This document shows, one piece after another, positions 50,152-59,378 of a DNA stretch of 64,000 bases. The notes beneath the pieces are model-generated. The model did not search any database, was not told where the DNA came from, and saw nothing but the letters and a program-made list of their open reading frames with translations. Each line of letters begins with the position of its first letter. Within the stretch, counting starts at the first letter, position 1. Origin of the DNA: Aquimarina rhabdastrellae (lineage in GTDB: Bacteria > Bacteroidota > Bacteroidia > Flavobacteriales > Flavobacteriaceae); contig CANDNT010000001.1 in assembly GCA_947387485.1 (NCBI GenBank), forward strand, positions 930,001 to 994,000. Direction: 5' to 3'. The position numbers were made by a program, and so were the translations under genes.

Positions 50152-52335
50152 TTATTTCTTTACAAATCTTTTTGTGTAGATTTGATTTTCTTGCTGTATT
50201 ACAAGCATATACATTCCTGTATTAAGTGCAGACAAGTTTATCTCTTTTGACTTTACAATTCCTTTTTTAACGATCTGTCCTAATTGATTTACCACCTGGT
50301 ATGTTGTATTATCAAAAGCTTTTAAGCTAATGATTATATTATCTTCAACTGGATTAGGATATGCATTAAAAGTAACCGCATTATTAGATGTATCTAAGAC
50401 TTCGCTTTCGCTAGCGTTTTTATTTGTTGTTGCTATACAAAAGTTCTTTGTTCTTTCTGATGTAAAAGAGCTTCCTGATGTTATAGTTTGTCCTGTAGTT
50501 GTATTTCTTAATACATACGATCCGTTACCATAAGTACAGCAGATTCCATCTCCATAGCGATCTTTAATTACAAAAGTATAACATCCTGCTGCTAACGTTT
50601 TGCTAACTGTAACTGTACTTCCTTTTTGAGAAGAACTATAATTTCCTCCAGAAAACACTACTTGGTTATTAGCATTTTTAATTTCCCAACTTGTTTCTTC
50701 TGGATAATTATCAAAGGTTATACTAAAGCTTATGTCTTCATTAGTTGGTAATGGTGATGTTGTACCTCCATCGATAGTATGACTTCCTAAACCATTAAAT
50801 GTATTTGATGCAAATGAATCCCACTCTGAAGTAGTATAAGTTGTATTTGGCCCATTAACAGATGATTTACGTCTTAATGTAGTATTTTGTGCAAAACTTG
50901 AGCTTCCTCCATTAAAAGTACCTATAACATCCACTAGGACATTGTTTTTAAATAGTCCAACTGGATCATTACCATTAAATGTAAGTGCTCCTGTAGATGT
51001 CGTCAAATCTGCCTCTGCTTTTGCAGTACTACTTGCACTACTATTAGCGATTACATATACGTCACCATTGGCTAGAGTTCCGCTTAACGTTAATGTACTA
51101 TTCCAGCTTCCTGATCCATTAGATTGTTTCTTGATACTATAAGCAGATAAGTTAACACTACTACCTGTAAAGTTAGCTATCTCTAATACTTTGTTATTAG
51201 AAGATCCTTCAACATATTCTGAGAAAAATAAACTCGCTACTGATCCATTATCAGAATCATCATCATTAGTAGCAATTGTAGCTGCTTGACTTGCTGCAGA
51301 TGTATTTCCTGCTGCATCTTTTGCTTTAACTGCAAAAGTGTATGTAGTTCCTGCTGTTAAACCTGTAACTGTATATGACGTAGCAGTTGTAGTATGAATT
51401 AAACTACCGTTTCTTAAAATTTCGTATCCTGTTACTCCTACATTATCTGTTGAAGCATTCCAGTTCAATTGTGCTGTAGATGTTGTTGCTCCAGAAGCTA
51501 TAAGGTTTGCTGGTACAGATGGACTTTGAGTATCTGTAGGAATCGTAGTTCCTCCAAAACGATCTTCGGCTTGTGGTCCACCCCATATTGTTGTAGCAAA
51601 AGCAGGATTATCGATAAATGGGTTTCTATTTCCTTGTACTTGAGCTATTGCATTGTTACGTTGATCTTCAAATGGAGAAACAGGATCTTCTGCATTCCAC
51701 TCTAAGAATAACTGAATCATATTAGCGTCTGATGCTACAGGAGTTCCTACACCTACATTAGTAGGTAAACAACGATTTCCGTATCTTAAATATACATACA
51801 TCATCATTCTAGCTACATCTCCTTTATATTCATCACCAGGATACCAATGTCCTTGAGATGTTACTTTTGAATCACCACTTCCATCTGCAAATTTTCTACT
51901 ACTACGAGTAGAGTTCCATTGTGTATCTGCAGCTCTAATATGGTGAGCATCTGCTCCAGGTCCAGTTGTTCCTAAATTAGGATTTCCTAAAGATTTAGGA
52001 TAAACATGTTCTCTATTCCAATCTGTAGAACCACCTCCATTAGCATCAACGCTACGAGTTCTATCATTTTTTGTTATATTATCTGTATCATTATATCCAT
52101 AAATTAAGATTACCTTGGAAGCATCATTAGGATCTAAATCTGCTTCTTTTAAAGCATTCCATACTCCAGGAGTGTATGAAATAAGTGATACGTGAGTATT
52201 TGTGATTTTTGTTGTTAAAGCAGATTTTAAAGACTGCCCAGACTGATTTAAGTTAACATCATTATAGTACGTAGGGATCTGTGCATATCCTATTACTGAT
52301 ATTAACAATAAAATAAAGGGTAAAAGTTTTTTCAT
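50152..52335 (-). CDS. Secreted endonuclease I-family nuclease with Fn3, lamin-tail and T9SS domains
   Basis: A 727-residue modular exported nuclease. After the signal peptide (to about 18), residues 20-260 form an endonuclease I (NucM/EndA) domain: NREHVYPKSLG and ADAHHIRAADTQWNSTRSSRKF contain the conserved catalytic histidine and metal-binding residues. A fibronectin type III domain (about 268-352, starting PSVPANLIASG) and a lamin-tail domain (about 365-500, SLFFSEYVEGSSNNKVLEI) follow. The end is a T9SS sorting domain (YPNPVEDNIIISL, then YTKRFVKK at the terminus). It probably digests environmental DNA for phosphate or nucleotides. The promoter-like box at 52374 and the terminator at 50106 define a single-gene unit. 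Confidence 0.92.
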   Translation of the reverse strand: MKKLLPFILLLISVIGYAQIPTYYNDVNLNQSGQSLKSALTTKITNTHVSLISYTPGVWNALKEADLDPNDASKVILIYGYNDTDNITKNDRTRSVDANGGGSTDWNREHVYPKSLGNPNLGTTGPGADAHHIRAADTQWNSTRSSRKFADGSGDSKVTSQGHWYPGDEYKGDVARMMMYVYLRYGNRCLPTNVGVGTPVASDANMIQLFLEWNAEDPVSPFEDQRNNAIAQVQGNRNPFIDNPAFATTIWGGPQAEDRFGGTTIPTDTQSPSVPANLIASGATTSTAQLNWNASTDNVGVTGYEILRNGSLIHTTTATSYTVTGLTAGTTYTFAVKAKDAAGNTSAASQAATIATNDDDSDNGSVASLFFSEYVEGSSNNKVLEIANFTGSSVNLSAYSIKKQSNGSGSWNSTLTLSGTLANGDVYVIANSSASSTAKAEADLTTSTGALTFNGNDPVGLFKNNVLVDVIGTFNGGSSSFAQNTTLRRKSSVNGPNTTYTTSEWDSFASNTFNGLGSHTIDGGTTSPLPTNEDISFSITFDNYPEETSWEIKNANNQVVFSGGNYSSSQKGSTVTVSKTLAAGCYTFVIKDRYGDGICCTYGNGSYVLRNTTTGQTITSGSSFTSERTKNFCIATTNKNASESEVLDTSNNAVTFNAYPNPVEDNIIISLKAFDNTTYQVVNQLGQIVKKGIVKSKEINLSALNTGMYMLVIQQENQIYTKRFVKK

Positions 52336-52809: not shown

Positions 52810-52838
52810 TATCTCTAATCTTAAATAAATTATATATC

Positions 52839-53027
52839 ATGAAAAAAATCTTAAACTTAAAGGGGATTAAAACATTAAACAGAGATGAACAACAACAAAT
52901 TAAAGGAGCTTGGGGACGAGTTTCTTGTTGCCCTACAGGTAGAGGATGCCTTATAGCATTTGGTAATGAAACTTTTTGTGAGCCAGGATATTGTGATAGC
53001 AGAAGAGGAACTTGTATCTTTTATTAA
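52839..53027 (+). CDS. Cys-rich double-glycine-leader peptide A1
   Basis: A 62-residue precursor. The first 24 residues (MKKILNLKGIKTLNRDEQQQ then IKGA) are a leader of the double-glycine/ComC type, with the predicted cut after G23-A24. The predicted mature part is about 38 residues with six cysteines in the order CC-x5-C-x9-C-x4-C-x6-C, rich in Gly and Arg, which fits a disulfide-stabilised mini-protein. Its leader is almost identical to A2 at the DNA level. It is followed by its own terminator (53076) and preceded by its own promoter-like box. An exported bacteriocin- or toxin-like role is inferred. No activity can be shown from the sequence. Confidence 0.75.
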   Translation: MKKILNLKGIKTLNRDEQQQIKGAWGRVSCCPTGRGCLIAFGNETFCEPGYCDSRRGTCIFY

Positions 53028-53075
53028 TATCTAGTTATTCAATAATAAGAAGATCATAAACTTTTACATAGTTAT

Positions 53076-53107
53076 AGAGAGAATCATTTAGGTTCTCTCT
53101 TTTTTTA
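53076..53107 (+). terminator. Terminator of peptide A1
   Basis: AGAGAGAA (53076-53083) pairs with TTCTCTCT (53093-53100) around a nine-base loop, then a run of T. Confidence 0.8.
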
Positions 53108-53164
53108 TTTTTTCACCTCATATAGTTTACGTTTTATACATAACTTATTTTTAACAAGATATAG

Positions 53165-53172
53165 TACTTTTA
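53165..53172 (+). promoter_or_regulatory. Promoter-like -7 box (TACTTTTA) before peptide A2
   Basis: 25 bases before the A2 ATG, in a longer block (AACAAGATATAGTACTTTTA) closely matching the one before A3, so the promoter was duplicated with the gene. Confidence 0.4.
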
Positions 53173-53197
53173 ATTTTCATTAAATACACTATAAATC

Positions 53198-53389
53198 ATG
53201 AAAAAAATCTTAAACTTAAAGGGAATTAAAACGTTAAACAGAGACGAACAACAACAAATTAAAGGAGCTTGGGGACGAGTTTCTTGTTGTCCTTCTGGAA
53301 GAGGTTGTTTATTAGGTTATTATAACGGTGAACCTTTTTGTGAACCAGGTTATTGTGATAGAAGAAGAGGAACTTGTATCATCTACTAA
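53198..53389 (+). CDS. Cys-rich double-glycine-leader peptide A2
   Basis: A 63-residue precursor, the closest paralogue of A1. The leader (IKGA end) is identical in protein and nearly identical in DNA up to about codon 32, after which the core changes. Core cysteines are CC-x5-C-x10-C-x4-C-x6-C (SCCPSGRGC, then FCEPGYC, then TCIIY). ATG starts of A1 and A2 are exactly 359 bases apart, as are A2 and A3, which points to tandem unit duplication. It has its own terminator at 53416. Confidence 0.75.
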   Translation: MKKILNLKGIKTLNRDEQQQIKGAWGRVSCCPSGRGCLLGYYNGEPFCEPGYCDRRRGTCIIY

Positions 53390-53415
53390 TACGAAACTTT
53401 CTTTTTAAAAGACAT

Positions 53416-53448
53416 ATATACGGAATCAAGTTTGATTCCGTATATTTT
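53416..53448 (+). terminator. Terminator of peptide A2
   Basis: ATATACGGAATCAA (53416-53429) pairs with TTGATTCCGTATAT (53432-53445), a perfect 14-base-pair stem with a two-base centre, then TTT. Confidence 0.7.
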
Positions 53449-53523
53449 ACACACTTTTCTTCACCTATATTTTACAGTAAAAATTATATGTTTTTTACGT
53501 AATTCATTTTCAATAAGATATGG

Positions 53524-53531
53524 TAACTTTA
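53524..53531 (+). promoter_or_regulatory. Promoter-like -7 box (TAACTTTA) before peptide A3
   Basis: 25 bases before the A3 ATG, within a block homologous to the A2 upstream region (AATAAGATATGGTAACTTTA). Confidence 0.4.
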
Positions 53532-53556
53532 ATTCTCATTTAAATATTCACATATC

Positions 53557-53745
53557 ATGAAAAAAATCTTAAACTTAAAGGGTATCAAGACATTAAACAA
53601 AGTAGAGCAACGAGAAATCAAAGGTGCTTGGACTCAACATACTTATTGTAAAGGAACTAATCAATGTTGTTTCCGTTTACCTAATGGAAATGAATTTTGT
53701 GATGCTGGATATTGTATGGCTTATGGTAGATGTGTATGGGCATAA
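53557..53745 (+). CDS. Cys-rich double-glycine-leader peptide A3
   Basis: A 62-residue precursor with leader MKKILNLKGIKTLNKVEQRE ending IKGA. The core has six cysteines in a different arrangement from A1 and A2: C-x5-CC-x9-C-x4-C-x5-C (YCKGTNQCC, NEFCDAGYC, GRCVWA). The first and third cysteines keep the A1/A2 spacing, but the second moves from next to the first to next to the third. There is no terminator before A4, 63 bases downstream, so A3 and A4 are probably cotranscribed. Confidence 0.74.
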   Translation: MKKILNLKGIKTLNKVEQREIKGAWTQHTYCKGTNQCCFRLPNGNEFCDAGYCMAYGRCVWA

Positions 53746-53808
53746 ATATGTCTCAACATATTTCTTATAACACTAATCAATATCTAAACTTCATAAAACA
53801 TATTAATC

Positions 53809-53991
53809 ATGAAAAATATCTTGAATTTTAAAGGTATCAAAACGTTAAGTAAAAGCGAGCAAAAGCAAATTAATGGTGCTGCTGTACAACGTCCGTGGTG
53901 CGGTGGTCCTAAACGTTGTTGTATAAATACTGCTTCAGGAGTATTTTGCGACTACGGTTATTGCTATGGTAATCGCTGTGAATGGGCATAG
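53809..53991 (+). CDS. Cys-rich double-glycine-leader peptide A4
   Basis: A 60-residue precursor. The leader (MKNILNFKGIKTLSKSEQKQ, INGA end) is the same family with several changes. The core is C-x5-CC-x8-C-x4-C-x4-C (WCGGPKRCC, FCDYGYC, RCEWA), the A3-type arrangement. It lies 63 bases after A3 with no terminator or clear promoter box between them, and the shared terminator is at 54016. Confidence 0.74.
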   Translation: MKNILNFKGIKTLSKSEQKQINGAAVQRPWCGGPKRCCINTASGVFCDYGYCYGNRCEWA

Positions 53992-54015
53992 TCTCTTTAT
54001 TTATTATAATTTTTC

Positions 54016-54054
54016 AATCGCTTAAAATCCCTTATGGTTTTAAGCGATTTTTCT
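54016..54054 (+). terminator. Terminator of peptides A3-A4
   Basis: AATCGCTTAAAA (54016-54027) pairs with TTTTAAGCGATT (54038-54049), then TTTCTTT. Confidence 0.85.
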
Positions 54055-54124
54055 TTAATACAACTTCTTAATTTCCCGTATTTTTTTGATGTCTTATACG
54101 CATACCAAATTCAAAAGACTATAG

Positions 54125-54132
54125 TAAGTTTA
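54125..54132 (+). promoter_or_regulatory. Promoter-like -7 box (TAAGTTTA) before peptide A5
   Basis: 22 bases before the A5 ATG, in a context (GACTATAGTAAGTTTA) resembling the A2 and A3 upstream blocks. Confidence 0.35.
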
Positions 54133-54154
54133 AGGTTTAAAAAATCACAACATC

Positions 54155-54346
54155 ATGAAAACTATCTTAAATTTAAAAGGGGTTAAAACCTTAACCAAAA
54201 AAGAACAACAAGAAATTTCTGGAGCCAACGCTTCAAACCGCCCATGGTGCGGTGGTCGTAACCTTTGTTGTATGTACATAGGTCCTCGTCTTTTTTGTGA
54301 CTCTGGAAGGTGTCAACCTAACGGAAGAGATTGCGCTTTTAATTAA
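54155..54346 (+). CDS. Cys-rich double-glycine-leader peptide A5
   Basis: A 63-residue precursor. Leader MKTILNLKGVKTLTKKEQQE ends ISGA. The core is C-x5-CC-x8-C-x4-C-x6-C (WCGGRNLCC, FCDSGRC, RDCAFN). The WCGG start and Cys spacing match A4. It is the last of cluster A, with its own box at 54125 and the terminator at 54360 shared with ackA. Confidence 0.74.
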   Translation: MKTILNLKGVKTLTKKEQQEISGANASNRPWCGGRNLCCMYIGPRLFCDSGRCQPNGRDCAFN

Positions 54347-54359
54347 CTGTGTAAAAGCA

Positions 54360-54387
54360 AAAAGAGCGTTAATAACGCTCTTTTTTT
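54360..54387. terminator. Bidirectional terminator between peptide A5 and ackA
   Basis: AGAGCGTT (54363-54370) pairs with AACGCTCT (54374-54381) with A and T runs at either side. ackA's stop is at 54391 on the other strand. Confidence 0.85.
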
Positions 54388-54390
54388 ATT

Positions 54391-55572
54391 TTATAATAAC
54401 TCAAAAGATTGCTTAGCAATCTCTAATTCTTCATTAGTAGGAATCACCATAATCTTAATTTTACTTGATTCTTTATGAATACTTCTTGCTTTCTTTGCTC
54501 GAATATTATTTTCTTCTTCATTAAGCGCTATCCCAAAATATTCCATGTCTTGGCAAACAAGTTTTCTCATCATAGATGAATTCTCACCAATTCCTGCTGT
54601 AAAAACTATAGCATCAAGACCATTCATTACAGCTACATACGCTCCAATAAACTTTTTGATACGATAGGCACTCATTTCTAAAGCTAATTTACAAGCTTTA
54701 TCTCCTGCTGCAGCTTTGGCTTCAATATCTCTTAAATCACTATATCCAGTAAGTCCTAACATTCCGCTTTCTTTTTGAAGCATTGTATTTACGTCTTCTA
54801 AAGTATATCCTTTATTATTTACCAAATAAAATACTATTGCTGGATCTATATCACCAGATCGTGTTCCCATGATCAATCCGTTCATAGGTGCGAATCCTAA
54901 GGTATGATCTATACTTTCTCCATTTTTTACTGCCGTCATACTACATCCATTTCCTAAGTGAATTGTAATAATATTTGAGGTAGTTTTTTCTAATAGCTTT
55001 TGGGCTTCTTGTACTACATATTTATGGCTTGTACCATGAAAACCATATAATCTAATATCATGTTCGTCTAACAATGCATTAGGAATTGCATATTTATATG
55101 CCTTCTCTGGTATTGTCTGGTGATATGCTGTATCAAAAACAGCTATTTGTTTAGCTTCTGGAAAAATAGTTTCTGCTACTTCGATTCCTTCTAGATTTGC
55201 AGGGTTATGTAAAGGCGCTAAAGAAAATAACTCCTTAATTTTAGCTTTTACAGCTGTTGTAATTAATGTTGTAGTAGCAAACTCACTTCCACCATGTACA
55301 ACTCTATGCCCTACTGCTTCAATTTCTGAAACATCTTTAATCACTCCTACTTCGTTATCCATAAGATATTGAGCAATTAGTTTTAACCCTACAGTATGAT
55401 CTTTAATCTGGGTTTCGTTCTCTATTTCTTGCGTAGTTGTTGTATATGTTATTTTTGCATTTTTAAGTCCAATTCGTTCTACCAATCCTGAACAAATTAC
55501 TTTAGCTTCAGGCATCAAAAACAATTGAAATTTAATTGATGAGCTTCCTGAATTTAATACTAATATTTGCAT
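54391..55572 (-). CDS. ackA: Acetate kinase
   Basis: Acetate kinase interconverts acetyl phosphate plus ADP and acetate plus ATP; with Pta it links acetyl-CoA to ATP formation or acetate uptake. The 393-residue protein has the family blocks VLNSGSSSIKFQL at the N-terminus, VGHRVVHGG, TAYHQTIPEKAY, ITIHLGNGCSM (catalytic Asn/His region), GTRSGDIDPA and TAGIGENSSMMR. It starts 20 bases after pta and both form an operon. Peptide clusters A and B flank this operon. Confidence 0.96.
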   Translation of the reverse strand: MQILVLNSGSSSIKFQLFLMPEAKVICSGLVERIGLKNAKITYTTTTQEIENETQIKDHTVGLKLIAQYLMDNEVGVIKDVSEIEAVGHRVVHGGSEFATTTLITTAVKAKIKELFSLAPLHNPANLEGIEVAETIFPEAKQIAVFDTAYHQTIPEKAYKYAIPNALLDEHDIRLYGFHGTSHKYVVQEAQKLLEKTTSNIITIHLGNGCSMTAVKNGESIDHTLGFAPMNGLIMGTRSGDIDPAIVFYLVNNKGYTLEDVNTMLQKESGMLGLTGYSDLRDIEAKAAAGDKACKLALEMSAYRIKKFIGAYVAVMNGLDAIVFTAGIGENSSMMRKLVCQDMEYFGIALNEEENNIRAKKARSIHKESSKIKIMVIPTNEELEIAKQSFELL

Positions 55573-55592: not shown

Positions 55593-57689
55593 TTATAATC
55601 CTTTTGCTTGAATCGCTGTAATAATTACTGTATTGTATACATCATCTACTGTACATCCTCTACTTAAATCATTTACAGGTTTATTTAATCCTTGTAACAT
55701 TGGTCCTATGGCTAAAGCTCCTGTTTCTCTTTGTACAGCTTTGTAGGTATTATTTCCTGTATTCAAATCTGGAAAAATCAATACACTTGCTTGTCCTGCT
55801 ACTTCAGAGTCTGGTAATTTACTTTTTCCTACCTTCATATCTACAGCAGCATCATATTGAATTGGTCCTTCTATCTTAAGATCTGGACGTTTTTCTTTTA
55901 CTATCATAGTAGCTTCTCTCACCTTTTCTACATCTATTCCTTTTCCTGAACTTCCTGATGAATATGATAACATCGCTATTTTAGGTTCTATCCCAAATGC
56001 TTGTGCAGATTCTGCAGATGATATCGCTATCTCTGCTAATTGTGCTGCATTAGGATTAGGATTAATAGCACAATCTCCAAAAACAGAAACTCTATCGTCT
56101 AAACACATAAAAAATACCGAAGAAACAACTTGAACATCTGGTTTTGTCTTTATGAATTGTAATGCTGGTCGTATTGTATGTTGTGTTGTGTGTATTGCTC
56201 CAGAAACCATTCCATCTGCATGTCCTTTGTAGATCATCATTGTCCCAAAATACGATACGTCTGCCATCATATCTCTAGCGATATCCATATTTACATTTTT
56301 GTGCTTACGCAATTCATAAAACGTTTGCACATAATCATCATAATGTTCTGAATCTACTGGAGAAATAATATTTACTTTGCCGTAATCAAAAGGAATATCT
56401 AATTCGGTTATTTTATTTTGAATCTTCTTTTTATCTCCTAATAAAGTGATTTCAACCACATCAAGTGCTAATAACCTTGAGGTTGCTCTAAGAATACGTT
56501 CGTCTAATCCTTCTGGTAAAACGATATGTTTTTTATGTTGTAATGCTCTTTTCAATAAATTATATTGGAACATACTTGGGGTTATACTATCAGAAGTAAA
56601 TGTAATCAACTTATCTGCTAATCGATCTACGTCTACATATTTCTCAAATGTACTGATCGAAGTGTTGATTTTCTGCGTGTTTTCTGCATAAATTTTCGAC
56701 TTGATCGACCCTATTTTATTAGTTATAGAAAACGTACCGTTAGGCACAGATATAATAGGAACTACAGGAGTAACTCCTTCTATAAGTTTTAATATAGGTT
56801 CTTCTGGTATGATTCCTCCAGTAAGAATAATTCCAGAAATTTTAGGATAGTTTGCTGAGTTGTTTGCTTGTAAAGCTCCCAAGATAATATCTGCTCTATC
56901 TCCTGGGGTAATAACTAAGCTATTTTCTTTAAGATGTGTCAAGTAATTGCGTAATTGCATCGCTCCTACTCCATAACTTCCTGCTTGATTATTTAGGTAT
57001 TCTTTTCCGAATAAAACTTTTCCGTCTAACTCTTTTACTATTTCCTTAATTGTAGGGTTTATTAAGCTATTGATTTGTGGTATTACTACTATTTCAATCT
57101 CATCATTGGTAAACTCTTTTGGCAAGGTAGTAGTAAGTGTCACCTCTTTTTCGTGAGTAACTTTATTGGCTACAATAGCTATTACGTCAACATCTTTTGC
57201 ATGGAAAGAATCATAGGCTAATTTAAGATTCCCTATGAGTTCTGCATTACTCTTTTCGTAAGCACTTGAAACTATTATCGCTGGAATTCCAAGATTTTTT
57301 GCTATTAGCACATTAATATCAAATTCAATAATACTTCCTTCATCAGAAAAATCAGTTCCTTCTACCAGAATAAAATCAAACTTTTCTTCTAGTTTTTTAT
57401 ATTTCTCAATGATACCATCAATAATATCTCCTGATTTCCCTTTGTTGTATTTTTTTAGTACTTGACTACGAGTAAATGCATAGGTTTTCTTAACATTAAT
57501 ATCCAATTCAAAATGCGAGATTACTGTATTGATATGATTATCTATTTCTCCTTCTTCTAAATCGTCAATTATAGGTCTAAAATATCCTACTTTGGGAGTT
57601 TTACCTAATAACATTCTCATTAAACCTAAAACCACAATGGATTTACCACTATTGGGTTCAATAGTAGCTACATATACCGCCTTACTCAT
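55593..57689 (-). CDS. pta: Phosphate acetyltransferase
   Basis: Pta transfers acetyl between CoA and phosphate. The 698-residue protein is the long form: an N-terminal BioD-like P-loop-fold regulatory domain with EPNSGKSIVVLGLMR in place of a classic Walker A, a central DRTGG-like domain (LVITPGDRADIILGAL) and the C-terminal catalytic PTA domain (VLPEGLDERILRAT, DGMVSGAIHTTQHTIRPAL, ALAIGPMLQGLNKPVNDLSRG). It is the first gene of the pta-ackA operon. The promoter-like TATCTTTG lies at 57717-57724, about 28 bases before the ATG. Confidence 0.96.
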   Translation of the reverse strand: MSKAVYVATIEPNSGKSIVVLGLMRMLLGKTPKVGYFRPIIDDLEEGEIDNHINTVISHFELDINVKKTYAFTRSQVLKKYNKGKSGDIIDGIIEKYKKLEEKFDFILVEGTDFSDEGSIIEFDINVLIAKNLGIPAIIVSSAYEKSNAELIGNLKLAYDSFHAKDVDVIAIVANKVTHEKEVTLTTTLPKEFTNDEIEIVVIPQINSLINPTIKEIVKELDGKVLFGKEYLNNQAGSYGVGAMQLRNYLTHLKENSLVITPGDRADIILGALQANNSANYPKISGIILTGGIIPEEPILKLIEGVTPVVPIISVPNGTFSITNKIGSIKSKIYAENTQKINTSISTFEKYVDVDRLADKLITFTSDSITPSMFQYNLLKRALQHKKHIVLPEGLDERILRATSRLLALDVVEITLLGDKKKIQNKITELDIPFDYGKVNIISPVDSEHYDDYVQTFYELRKHKNVNMDIARDMMADVSYFGTMMIYKGHADGMVSGAIHTTQHTIRPALQFIKTKPDVQVVSSVFFMCLDDRVSVFGDCAINPNPNAAQLAEIAISSAESAQAFGIEPKIAMLSYSSGSSGKGIDVEKVREATMIVKEKRPDLKIEGPIQYDAAVDMKVGKSKLPDSEVAGQASVLIFPDLNTGNNTYKAVQRETGALAIGPMLQGLNKPVNDLSRGCTVDDVYNTVIITAIQAKGL

Positions 57690-58354: not shown

Positions 58355-58579
58355 ATGTTAAAGAACATTAAGCAATTCAACGGAGCTAAAGCTATTACTA
58401 AATCACAACAAAAAACCATTAAAGGAGGTGGTAGTTCTGGATCTTCTGGAGAAAATGGAGAAGGTCAACCATGTGGTTATATCATATATACACCTCAAGG
58501 ACCTGAATGGAAAGGATGTAAACCAAACTATTATTGTGTTGATAATGCTTGTAAACGTGTTAATCCAGGACCTCAATAA
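58355..58579 (+). CDS. Double-glycine-leader four-Cys peptide B1
   Basis: A 74-residue precursor. The leader MLKNIKQFNGAKAITKSQQK ends TIKGG at residues 24-25, followed by a Gly/Ser-rich spacer (GSSGSSGENG) and a core with four cysteines: C-x14-C-x5-C-x4-C-K. The core end is GCKPNYYCVDNACKR. It is the first of four tandem paralogues starting 278-287 bases apart, without terminators in between, so they form one operon. The leader differs from cluster A but has the same general design (Ile/Leu helix, Gln/Glu-rich middle, GG or GA end). Confidence 0.76.
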   Translation: MLKNIKQFNGAKAITKSQQKTIKGGGSSGSSGENGEGQPCGYIIYTPQGPEWKGCKPNYYCVDNACKRVNPGPQ

Positions 58580-58632
58580 TTTAAAAAATAATGTATCATT
58601 TCTAAAACTATTAATTCATTAATTTTTAAATC

Positions 58633-58857
58633 ATGTTAAAGAACATTAAGCAATTCAACGGAGCTAAAGCTATTACTAAATCACAACAAAAAACTATCAA
58701 AGGAGGAGGTAGTTCTGGATCTACTGGGGAAAATGGTAATCCTCCTCAATGTGGTTATATAATAAATACTTCACAAGGACCTGTGAGAAAAGAATGTGGG
58801 CCTAATTATTATTGTGTTCATGGTCGATGTAAATACATCTATCCTGGTCTAGATTAA
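58633..58857 (+). CDS. Double-glycine-leader four-Cys peptide B2
   Basis: A 74-residue precursor whose leader and Gly/Ser spacer are nearly identical to B1 in DNA, while the core differs: QCGYIINTSQGP, then ECGPNYYCVHGRCKY. The Cys spacing (x14, x5, x4) is preserved. The 53-base gap to B1 contains a copy of the AATTCATTAATTTTTAAATC stretch seen before each ATG. Confidence 0.76.
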   Translation: MLKNIKQFNGAKAITKSQQKTIKGGGSSGSTGENGNPPQCGYIINTSQGPVRKECGPNYYCVHGRCKYIYPGLD

Positions 58858-58917
58858 TACAATTTAAAGATGATGTGTCATTTTATAAACTATTTATTAA
58901 TTCATTAATTATTAATC

Positions 58918-59142
58918 ATGTTAAAGAACATCAAACAATTCAACGGAGCTAAAGCTATTACTAAATCACAACAAAAAACTATCAAAGGAGGTGGTAGCTC
59001 TGGATCTACTGGAGAAAATGGTATTCCACCTCAGTGTGGTTATGTTATATACACTCCACAAGGACCTGTAAGAAGAGAGTGTGGGCCAAATTATCGTTGT
59101 GTTCGTGGTTTATGCCAACGTATTTACCAAGGACCACAGTAA
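58918..59142 (+). CDS. Double-glycine-leader four-Cys peptide B3
   Basis: A 74-residue precursor with the same leader and spacer. Core: QCGYVIYTPQGP, then ECGPNYRCVRGLCQR, with the x14, x5, x4 Cys pattern. It is followed by B4 62 bases downstream; the upstream segments of B3 and B4 (beginning GATGTGTCATTTT) are almost identical. Confidence 0.76.
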   Translation: MLKNIKQFNGAKAITKSQQKTIKGGGSSGSTGENGIPPQCGYVIYTPQGPVRRECGPNYRCVRGLCQRIYQGPQ

Positions 59143-59204
59143 ACTATTAAATTACCATGATGTGTCATTTTGTAAACTATTTATTAATTCATTAATTATT
59201 AATC

Positions 59205-59378
59205 ATGTTAAAAAACATCAAACAGATTAAGGGTATTCAAGTTATCGAAAAAACAACACAAAGAGCAATTAATGGAGGTGGGCCTTCATATTCTTGTAGC
59301 TATAGCTCAGTACAATGTCCTCCTGGATGGTATTGTGCTTATCCATATTGTAAAAAAATCCCTGTAGGGCCAAGATAA
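59205..59378 (+). CDS. Double-glycine-leader four-Cys peptide B4 (short, divergent)
   Basis: The ATG at 59205 starts a 57-residue precursor ending at TAA 59376-59378. The leader MLKNIKQIKGIQVIEKTTQR ends AINGG at residues 24-25. The Gly/Ser spacer is missing and the first Cys loop is shorter, giving C-x6-C-x5-C-x4-C-K (SCSYSSVQC, then CPPGWYCAYPYCKK). The upstream sequence is a close copy of B3's. It is a shorter, more diverged paralogue and the last gene of the unit, followed by the terminator at 59389. Confidence 0.72.
   Translation: MLKNIKQIKGIQVIEKTTQRAINGGGPSYSCSYSSVQCPPGWYCAYPYCKKIPVGPR

What the first reader, a model, noticed from the sequence alone, without database searches (positions are those of the whole stretch)
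52839..54346. Five-member family of exported Cys-rich mini-proteins with a shifting cysteine
Five consecutive genes encode 60-63 residue precursors with a conserved 24-residue leader ending in G-A and cores of six cysteines. A1 and A2 have CC-x5-C, A3-A5 have C-x5-CC: the first and third cysteines stay seven positions apart, while the second moves from beside the first to beside the third. A change of that kind in otherwise equivalent cores predicts different disulfide pairing on one scaffold. Leader conservation with core variation is what bacteriocin and toxin families show, but I recognise no family with this exact framework, so it may be undescribed.
Basis: partly seen in the sequence, partly recalled or inferred. 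Interest (0 to 1): 0.85.

Follow-up and report, generated by a model that had tools for sequence, protein, structure and literature searches.

The report
Two-framework six-cysteine secreted peptide array
A marine Aquimarina bacterium carries five neighbouring genes for small, probably secreted six-cysteine peptides of one family in which one cysteine sits in two alternative places; what they do has not been tested.

Summary
Five genes at 52839-54346 encode 60-63 residue precursors with a 24-residue leader ending G-A and six-cysteine cores: A1-A2 are CC-x5-C (type I), A3-A5 C-x5-CC (type II). Relatives show the contrast is real: I collected 52 distinct type I and 74 type II precursors. In 17 Aquimarina genomes one array holds both; where both flanks were read, the array lies between endonuclease I and ackA. 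Type I was found only in Aquimarina; type II also in Tenacibaculum. A tree needs one change between types (87/90), so C-x-CC is probably ancestral. "Seven apart" fails family-wide.

Most likely mechanism (inferred): leader removal and export by a C39-ABC transporter encoded elsewhere, with disulfides made by proteins fusing a C39-like domain lacking the N-terminal cysteine to VKOR and thioredoxin (three copies, the only VKORs found in the genome). Nearest characterised system: bacteroidetocins.

Positional orthologues show purifying selection; cores are not hypervariable, though non-cysteine core positions change somewhat faster than leaders. No NCBIfam, Pfam, PHROG or PDB match was significant. 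Function, and whether disulfide pairing differs between the types, remain undecided. It is a new variant of a known kind.

The parts
52839..53027 (+). A1, type I precursor (CC-x5-C), 62 aa; leader 52839-52910, core 52911-53024
53198..53389 (+). A2, type I precursor, 63 aa; core 53270-53386; 87% identical to A1
53557..53745 (+). A3, type II precursor (C-x5-CC), 62 aa; core 53629-53742
53809..53991 (+). A4, type II precursor, 60 aa; core 53881-53988
54155..54346 (+). A5, type II precursor, 63 aa; core 54227-54343
53076..53100 (+). terminator-like hairpin with T tract after A1
   Evidence: consensus scan; 6 sites found in the region, 0.7 expected by shuffling
54016..54049 (+). terminator-like hairpin after A4
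54359..54385 (+). terminator-like hairpin after A5
52821..52909 (+). first of five direct copies (89 nt) of the leader-coding DNA with 18 nt upstream; the other copies are 93, 81, 71 and 76% identical
50152..52335 (-). conserved left neighbour, 727 aa; called endonuclease I from my reading of the translation, no family scan was run on it
54391..55572 (-). conserved right neighbour, acetate kinase-like (ackA), followed by pta at 55593-57689; names from my reading of the translations

Best explanation
The five genes make double-glycine-type precursors. A C39-ABC transporter encoded far away (G000:C4, 734 aa, beside an HlyD-type adaptor) cuts after Gly-Ala and exports cores of 36-39 residues. Proteins joining a C39-like domain (no N-terminal cysteine, perhaps a leader-binding domain) to VKOR and thioredoxin domains oxidise the six cysteines to three disulfides. 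The cores are small beta-rich scaffolds in which one cysteine of the N-terminal half lies next to the first cysteine (type I) or next to the third (type II); the C-terminal unit C-x4-C...C is shared. Most likely role: bacteriocin-like antagonism of other bacteria, with several variants displayed from one locus. Steps shown from sequence: leader, cysteine frameworks, family-wide persistence, presence of the exporter and oxidase genes. Steps inferred: export, cleavage site, disulfides, role. My odds: export by the C39 route 0.8; disulfide formation by the VKOR fusions 0.7; antagonism as the main role 0.4.
For: Leader ends G-A in all five; nearest curated leader model is a bacteriocin-like one, below cut-off. 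Exporter with an N-terminal Cys (DCGPTC), ABC and membrane domains, HlyD gene next to it. C39-like/VKOR/thioredoxin fusion directly upstream of the exporter; two more copies beside other GG-leader peptide clusters; all three VKOR matches of the genome lie in these fusions. In the genus the fusion occurs in 28 of 28 genomes with a peptide match and in 1 of 5 without (chance 1.2e-4 by hand, not corrected for relatedness). The fusion lies within 1 kb of an exporter homologue in 11 of 31 genomes (hand count of printed rows; the list is cut). Type I and II cores are homologous without the leader (hhalign 96.7%). Precedent: bacteroidetocins need a C39-ABC transporter and a thiol oxidoreductase, and their producers lack an immunity protein (PMC6671954, passages).
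Against: No exporter, oxidase or immunity gene lies in the array. G003 and G036 have the fusion but no peptide match, and G003 and G007 have exporter homologues without peptides. The genome has many other GG-leader peptides (24 matches at E <= 1e-3, 41 at E <= 1), so the machinery is not specific to these five. Conservation across the genus and purifying selection fit a stable function as well as warfare. No activity, expression or mass data exist here.
Confidence: 0.5

Rival explanations
1. The peptides are exported by the same route but serve a conserved non-antagonistic role, such as a signal, an enzyme inhibitor or a molecule directed at the eukaryotic hosts of marine flavobacteria.
For: The array site is conserved: both flanks were read on one stretch in 18 genomes, 17 of them with intact type I or II genes. 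Leaders and cores have similar low pN. No immunity gene. No relative among plasmid, phage or viral records searched.
Against: Copy number and variants differ widely between genomes, with duplications, losses and mixed halves, more like an arsenal. No receptor or target was identified or looked for. Bacteroidetocins also lack immunity proteins.
Confidence: 0.35
2. The moved cysteine keeps the same partner: the two positions are close in space, so types I and II share one disulfide pattern and the shift is structurally near-neutral.
For: C-terminal halves are exchanged between the frameworks: CDYGYC..CMWA with CC-x4-C in 5 precursors and CEP with C-x-CC in 4. Loop length varies from 4 to 11 in type I. 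Both models are all-beta.
Against: The cross-strand idea is my inference.
Confidence: 0.45
3. One reading: the shift produces different disulfide pairing on an otherwise equivalent scaffold.
For: Vicinal cysteines differ (C1-C2 in type I, C2-C3 in type II), and the two frameworks have been kept apart on the tree by one change.
Against: No direct evidence; exchangeable C-terminal halves suggest shared partners. Four-cysteine relatives in Tenacibaculum lose one of the vicinal pair (best fit C3) together with C4 or C6 by two equally possible alignments, which says C3 pairs with the C-terminal half in type II but nothing about type I.
Confidence: 0.3
4. Type I and type II are two unrelated core families that only share the leader.
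For: Leaders recombine freely in GG-peptide families (established knowledge, recalled).
Against: Cores without leaders match at 96.7% probability, E 3.7e-10; intermediate combinations of halves exist.
Confidence: 0.05

Closest known systems
Bacteroidetocins (class IIf bacteriocins of Bacteroidales, PMC6671954)
   Same: Bacteroidota; short leader removed at a double-glycine-type site; cysteine-bearing mature peptide; C39-ABC transporter and thiol oxidoreductase; no immunity protein (passages).
   Different: Leader 15-16 aa against 24 here; bacteroidetocin A and B have four cysteines and 42-residue mature peptides, here six in 36-39; their genes lie together in one region, here the machinery is elsewhere. 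The mature sequences were not compared.
NCBIfam NF047798 leader_Chryseo, 'bacteriocin-like protein'
   Same: Leader position and type; sub-threshold match for 5 of 10 members of alignment A4.
   Different: Best 14.3 bits against a cut-off of 23.5; the model covers 18 leader positions and says nothing of the core.
Six-cysteine mini-protein frameworks (knottins, defensins and the like)
   Same: Short, six cysteines, beta-rich model.
   Different: Spacing C-x5-CC-x8/9-C-x4-C-x5-C does not fit the knottin spacing that I recall; no significant sequence or fold match in the PDB. Connectivity unknown.

Membership tests
NCBIfam NF047798 (leader_Chryseo) | score over the curated cut-off of 23.5 bits | tested here: not met
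   A4 14.3 bits; A1, A2, A3, A5 no match listed
TIGR04149 (GG_sam_targ_CFB) | score over the cut-off of 25 bits | tested here: not met
   12.7 bits for 1 of 10 members of A4, a Tenacibaculum peptide
Bacteroidetocin (class IIf) | leader of 15-16 aa ending GG | tested here: not met
   24 aa ending GA; definition from passages of PMC6671954
Bacteroidetocin (class IIf) | peptide gene beside C39-ABC transporter and TM protein genes | tested here: not met
   no such ORF between 49467 and 57689 on reading the list; the C39 exporter is on another contig
Bacteroidetocin (class IIf) | similar mature sequence and anti-Bacteroidales activity | not tested
   their sequences were not fetched; activity cannot be tested here
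C39-processed double-glycine-type peptides | leader ending GG/GA/GS before a variable core | tested here: met
C39-processed double-glycine-type peptides | C39-ABC transporter in the genome | tested here: met
   G000:C4:247182-249383, Peptidase_C39 1.7e-33, domains; that it takes these peptides is not shown
C39-processed double-glycine-type peptides | cleavage after the GA motif | not testable with these tools
   needs mass spectrometry
Inhibitor cystine knot (knottin) | cysteine spacing of the ICK consensus (recalled) | tested here: not met
   second and third cysteines adjacent in type II, first and second in type I
Inhibitor cystine knot (knottin) | C1-C4, C2-C5, C3-C6 connectivity | not testable with these tools
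   model coordinates not available
Known solved folds in the PDB | significant fold match | tested here: inconclusive
   no Foldseek match at E <= 0.001 for either model; best VIA Z 2.4 and 2.5

The most novel reading that the evidence does not exclude
One disulfide scaffold exists in nature in two stable, co-displayed forms that differ by the relocation of a single cysteine across a loop, with C-terminal halves exchanged between them, produced by a trans-acting export line whose oxidase is tethered to the leader through an inactive C39-like domain. It would be a natural experiment on how a disulfide network tolerates a moved cysteine, and on dedicated oxidative folding of exported peptides in Bacteroidota.
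Probability: 0.3. Interest if true: 0.7.

Novelty: new variant of a known kind. Interest (0 to 1): 0.5.

Why it matters
If the moved cysteine keeps its partner, the family gives dozens of natural sequences on either side of the change, including mixed halves, to learn how a disulfide framework can be rewired. If pairing differs, one array makes two topologies from one scaffold. The C39-like-VKOR-thioredoxin fusion, if it acts on these peptides, would be a dedicated oxidative folding step for exported peptides. These are directly testable with mass spectrometry of a culturable marine genus.

Tried and rejected
Pfam, NCBIfam and PHROGs gave no match over a cut-off; PADLOC was not searched. PDB sequence search: best E 0.031 (a Ly6/PLAUR protein, type I profile) and 1.8 (type II), not significant. 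Foldseek and VIA-align: no significant fold; the type II model's top row was an antifungal protein of Penicillium (E 0.92), the type I model's only listed VIA row the chitin-binding end of human chitotriosidase (Z 2.5, rmsd 2.3 over 35 residues); both too weak to use.

I first thought cores were far more conserved than leaders, but those groups had been picked by core motif. The unbiased positional tests withdrew that: core pN is below leader pN in 66 of 136 and 89 of 190 pairs, and without cysteine codons in 43 of 136. In both tests pS is near saturation and unequal core segments were left out or trimmed.

I first noted a C3-C4 disulfide from four-cysteine variants (note); MAFFT then aligned them with C5 missing, and C3+C6 loss is also possible, so only 'C3 or its vicinal neighbour goes with a C-terminal-half cysteine' is kept. 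Idea that type I is confined to the array: rejected, six type I precursors lie on other stretches (L154, L155, L156, L163, L164, L170).

Mobile-element origin: no relative of A3 in plasmids or phages and none confirmed for A4 in viral contigs. Literature: nine searches listed no paper that, from title and abstract start, describes this family; passages of PMC6671954 and PMC7440613 were seen, the rest as listings only. A comparative genomics paper on Aquimarina natural products was seen only as an entry in a reference list.

The tree used 45 type I and 43 type II precursors; one further row of a related pattern and 52 of other patterns were dropped, and sequences found later are not in it. Rows were placed by cysteine positions in the script and the two loop-end columns left out. 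It has few columns for 88 rows and its bootstrap had not settled.

Full report
What is there. Five ORFs at 52839-54346 (+) encode precursors of 62, 63, 62, 60 and 63 residues. They share a 24-residue leader ending Gly-Ala and have cores of 36-39 residues with six cysteines. A1 and A2 carry CC-x5-C, A3-A5 C-x5-CC. The leader-coding DNA with 18 nt upstream is a fivefold direct repeat, 71-93% identical to the first copy. Terminator-like hairpins follow A1, A4 and A5 (6 such sites in the region, 0.7 expected); A3 and A4 are 63 bp apart.

How far it extends. The window is G000:C1:930001-994000. Named relatives are mostly Aquimarina. A profile of the five matches 29 of 56 genomes at E <= 1e-3: 28 of the 33 genomes of the genus (own included) and one outside. 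The five without are G003, G005, G007, G021 and G031, of which G021 and G031 are under 90% complete. In 397 genomes drawn from the family only 6 match at E <= 1e-8, in 4 of 237 genera, with at most 15 candidates scored per genome. In a second genus, 19 of 97 genomes match a broader profile at E <= 1e-5; I infer that it is Tenacibaculum because named Tenacibaculum loci carry the same kind of peptide and script 66 shows no new peptide for four of its best loci.

Two frameworks. I collected 52 distinct type I precursors (47 distinct cores) and 74 type II (67 cores). The collection started from the window's own profile, so it is not a census. Type I came only from genomes of the window's genus or records named Aquimarina; type II came from these, from the second genus (24 of 74 precursors) and from metagenome-assembled genomes. 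In 17 genomes one array holds both types (G000, 1, 4, 6, 8, 9, 14, 16, 17, 18, 19, 20, 26, 27, 29, 30, 32). A recurring order is type I (CC-5-C), type II, type I (CC-4-C). Both flanks, endonuclease I and ackA, were read on one stretch in 18 genomes plus one further named record; in 17 of the 18 intact type I or II genes lie between (G023 has only an interrupted one), and 13 of them hold both types. In G020 the flanks are about 7 kb apart. Near ackA in G003, G005, G007, G011 and G022 a leader pattern found no such gene within about 1.5 kb.

Origin of the shift. Cores without leaders are homologous (hhalign 96.7%, E 3.7e-10). On a tree of 45 type I and 43 type II precursors, with the loop-end columns left out, the types need one change (support 87/90; one change in 88% of 200 bootstrap trees). 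C-terminal halves are mixed: of 52 type I, 40 have CEP, 5 the CDYGYC..CMWA half usual in type II, 7 other; of 74 type II, 59 have CD, 4 CEP, 11 other. CEP with C-x-CC occurs in the second genus (L117, L145, L148) and once in a genome of the window's genus (L161). So the C-terminal difference may be older than the cysteine move, and C-x-CC is the likelier ancestor. This is inference; the tree is not rooted.

Disulfides. Four-cysteine relatives in the second genus (L139, L140, L144, L188) have lost one of the vicinal pair, best fit C3, with a cysteine of the C-terminal half, C4 or C6 depending on the alignment. They look like one lineage. This suggests that C3 pairs with the C-terminal half in type II. 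For type I no such variant was found.

Export and oxidation. The genome has four Peptidase_C39 matches. One is a 734-aa C39-ABC protein with an N-terminal DCGPTC, followed by an HlyD-type gene. The other three are proteins of 530-532 aa with a C39-like domain without that N-terminal cysteine, a VKOR domain and a thioredoxin-like part (Pfam scan for the first one: VKOR 5.6e-12, C39 1.3e-8, thioredoxin below cut-off), with WCxxC and CGxC motifs in all three. All three VKOR matches of the genome are these. One lies directly before the exporter; the others lie beside clusters of other GG-leader peptides. The fusion occurs in 31 of 56 genomes: 29 of 33 of the genus, G036 and G049. In the genus it is present in 28 of 28 peptide-positive and 1 of 5 peptide-negative genomes (G003). 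By hand this gives a chance of 1.2e-4, without correction for relatedness, and two of the negatives are incomplete genomes.

Selection. In 17 genomes with one type II gene in the array, 136 pairs have mean pN 0.210 (leader) and 0.211 (core), pS 0.605 and 0.753; without cysteine codons core pN is 0.269. For the type I gene nearest endonuclease I in 20 genomes, 190 pairs have median pN 0.18 and 0.19. So cores are constrained and not hypervariable, but outside cysteines they change somewhat more than leaders.

What is known. No curated family passed its cut-off and no solved structure matched significantly. The best-studied parallel is the bacteroidetocins: in PMC6671954 (passages) deletion of the thiol oxidoreductase gene attenuates toxin activity, and the producers inhibit themselves, which suggests no immunity protein. 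So the lack of an immunity gene here does not argue against antagonism. The peptides fail the defining features of that class that I could test, but may work alike.

Verdict. A real, conserved and apparently undescribed family (within the libraries and nine literature searches used) of a known kind: leader-directed, exported, disulfide-rich peptides of Bacteroidota. The unusual part is the relocated cysteine, well supported as a sequence fact; its structural meaning is open.

Noticed in passing
window 58355-59378 (+): A second array of four GG-leader peptides of another family (74, 74, 74 and 57 aa), on the other side of ackA-pta. Two similar peptides occur in L053 near 10570 and beyond.
   Followed up: partly
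L046:1498-1683 (G000:C1 near 330513); L077, L082, L119, L181: GG-leader peptides with CC-x5-CC, that is, cysteines next to both loop ends; six such sequences. Their C-terminal halves differ, so homology is uncertain.
   Followed up: no
L149:1492-1668 (-): A C-x4-CC peptide in which the fourth cysteine seems to have moved (REPCRC instead of CEPGRC): possibly a second relocation.
   Followed up: no
L166, L171, L174, L176, L182, L186: Four-cysteine GG peptides C-x5-C-x10/15-C-x4-C whose spacing resembles type II without C3 and C6.
   Followed up: no
L088:10016-13622 (G000:C18): A C39-like-VKOR-thioredoxin gene followed by eight GG-leader peptide ORFs of several cysteine patterns.
   Followed up: partly
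L085:8279-9553 (G000:C4): A DUF6734 gene (PF20508, 2.5e-95) directly before the VKOR fusion and exporter; it looked glycosyltransferase-like to me on reading, untested.
   Followed up: no
L029 (G023:C9): The array site of G023 holds only an interrupted type I-like gene (two TAG in the profile match).
   Followed up: no
G000 whole genome: 41 matches to the leader-core profile at E <= 1 (24 at E <= 1e-3), a large set of GG-leader peptides scattered over many contigs.
   Followed up: partly
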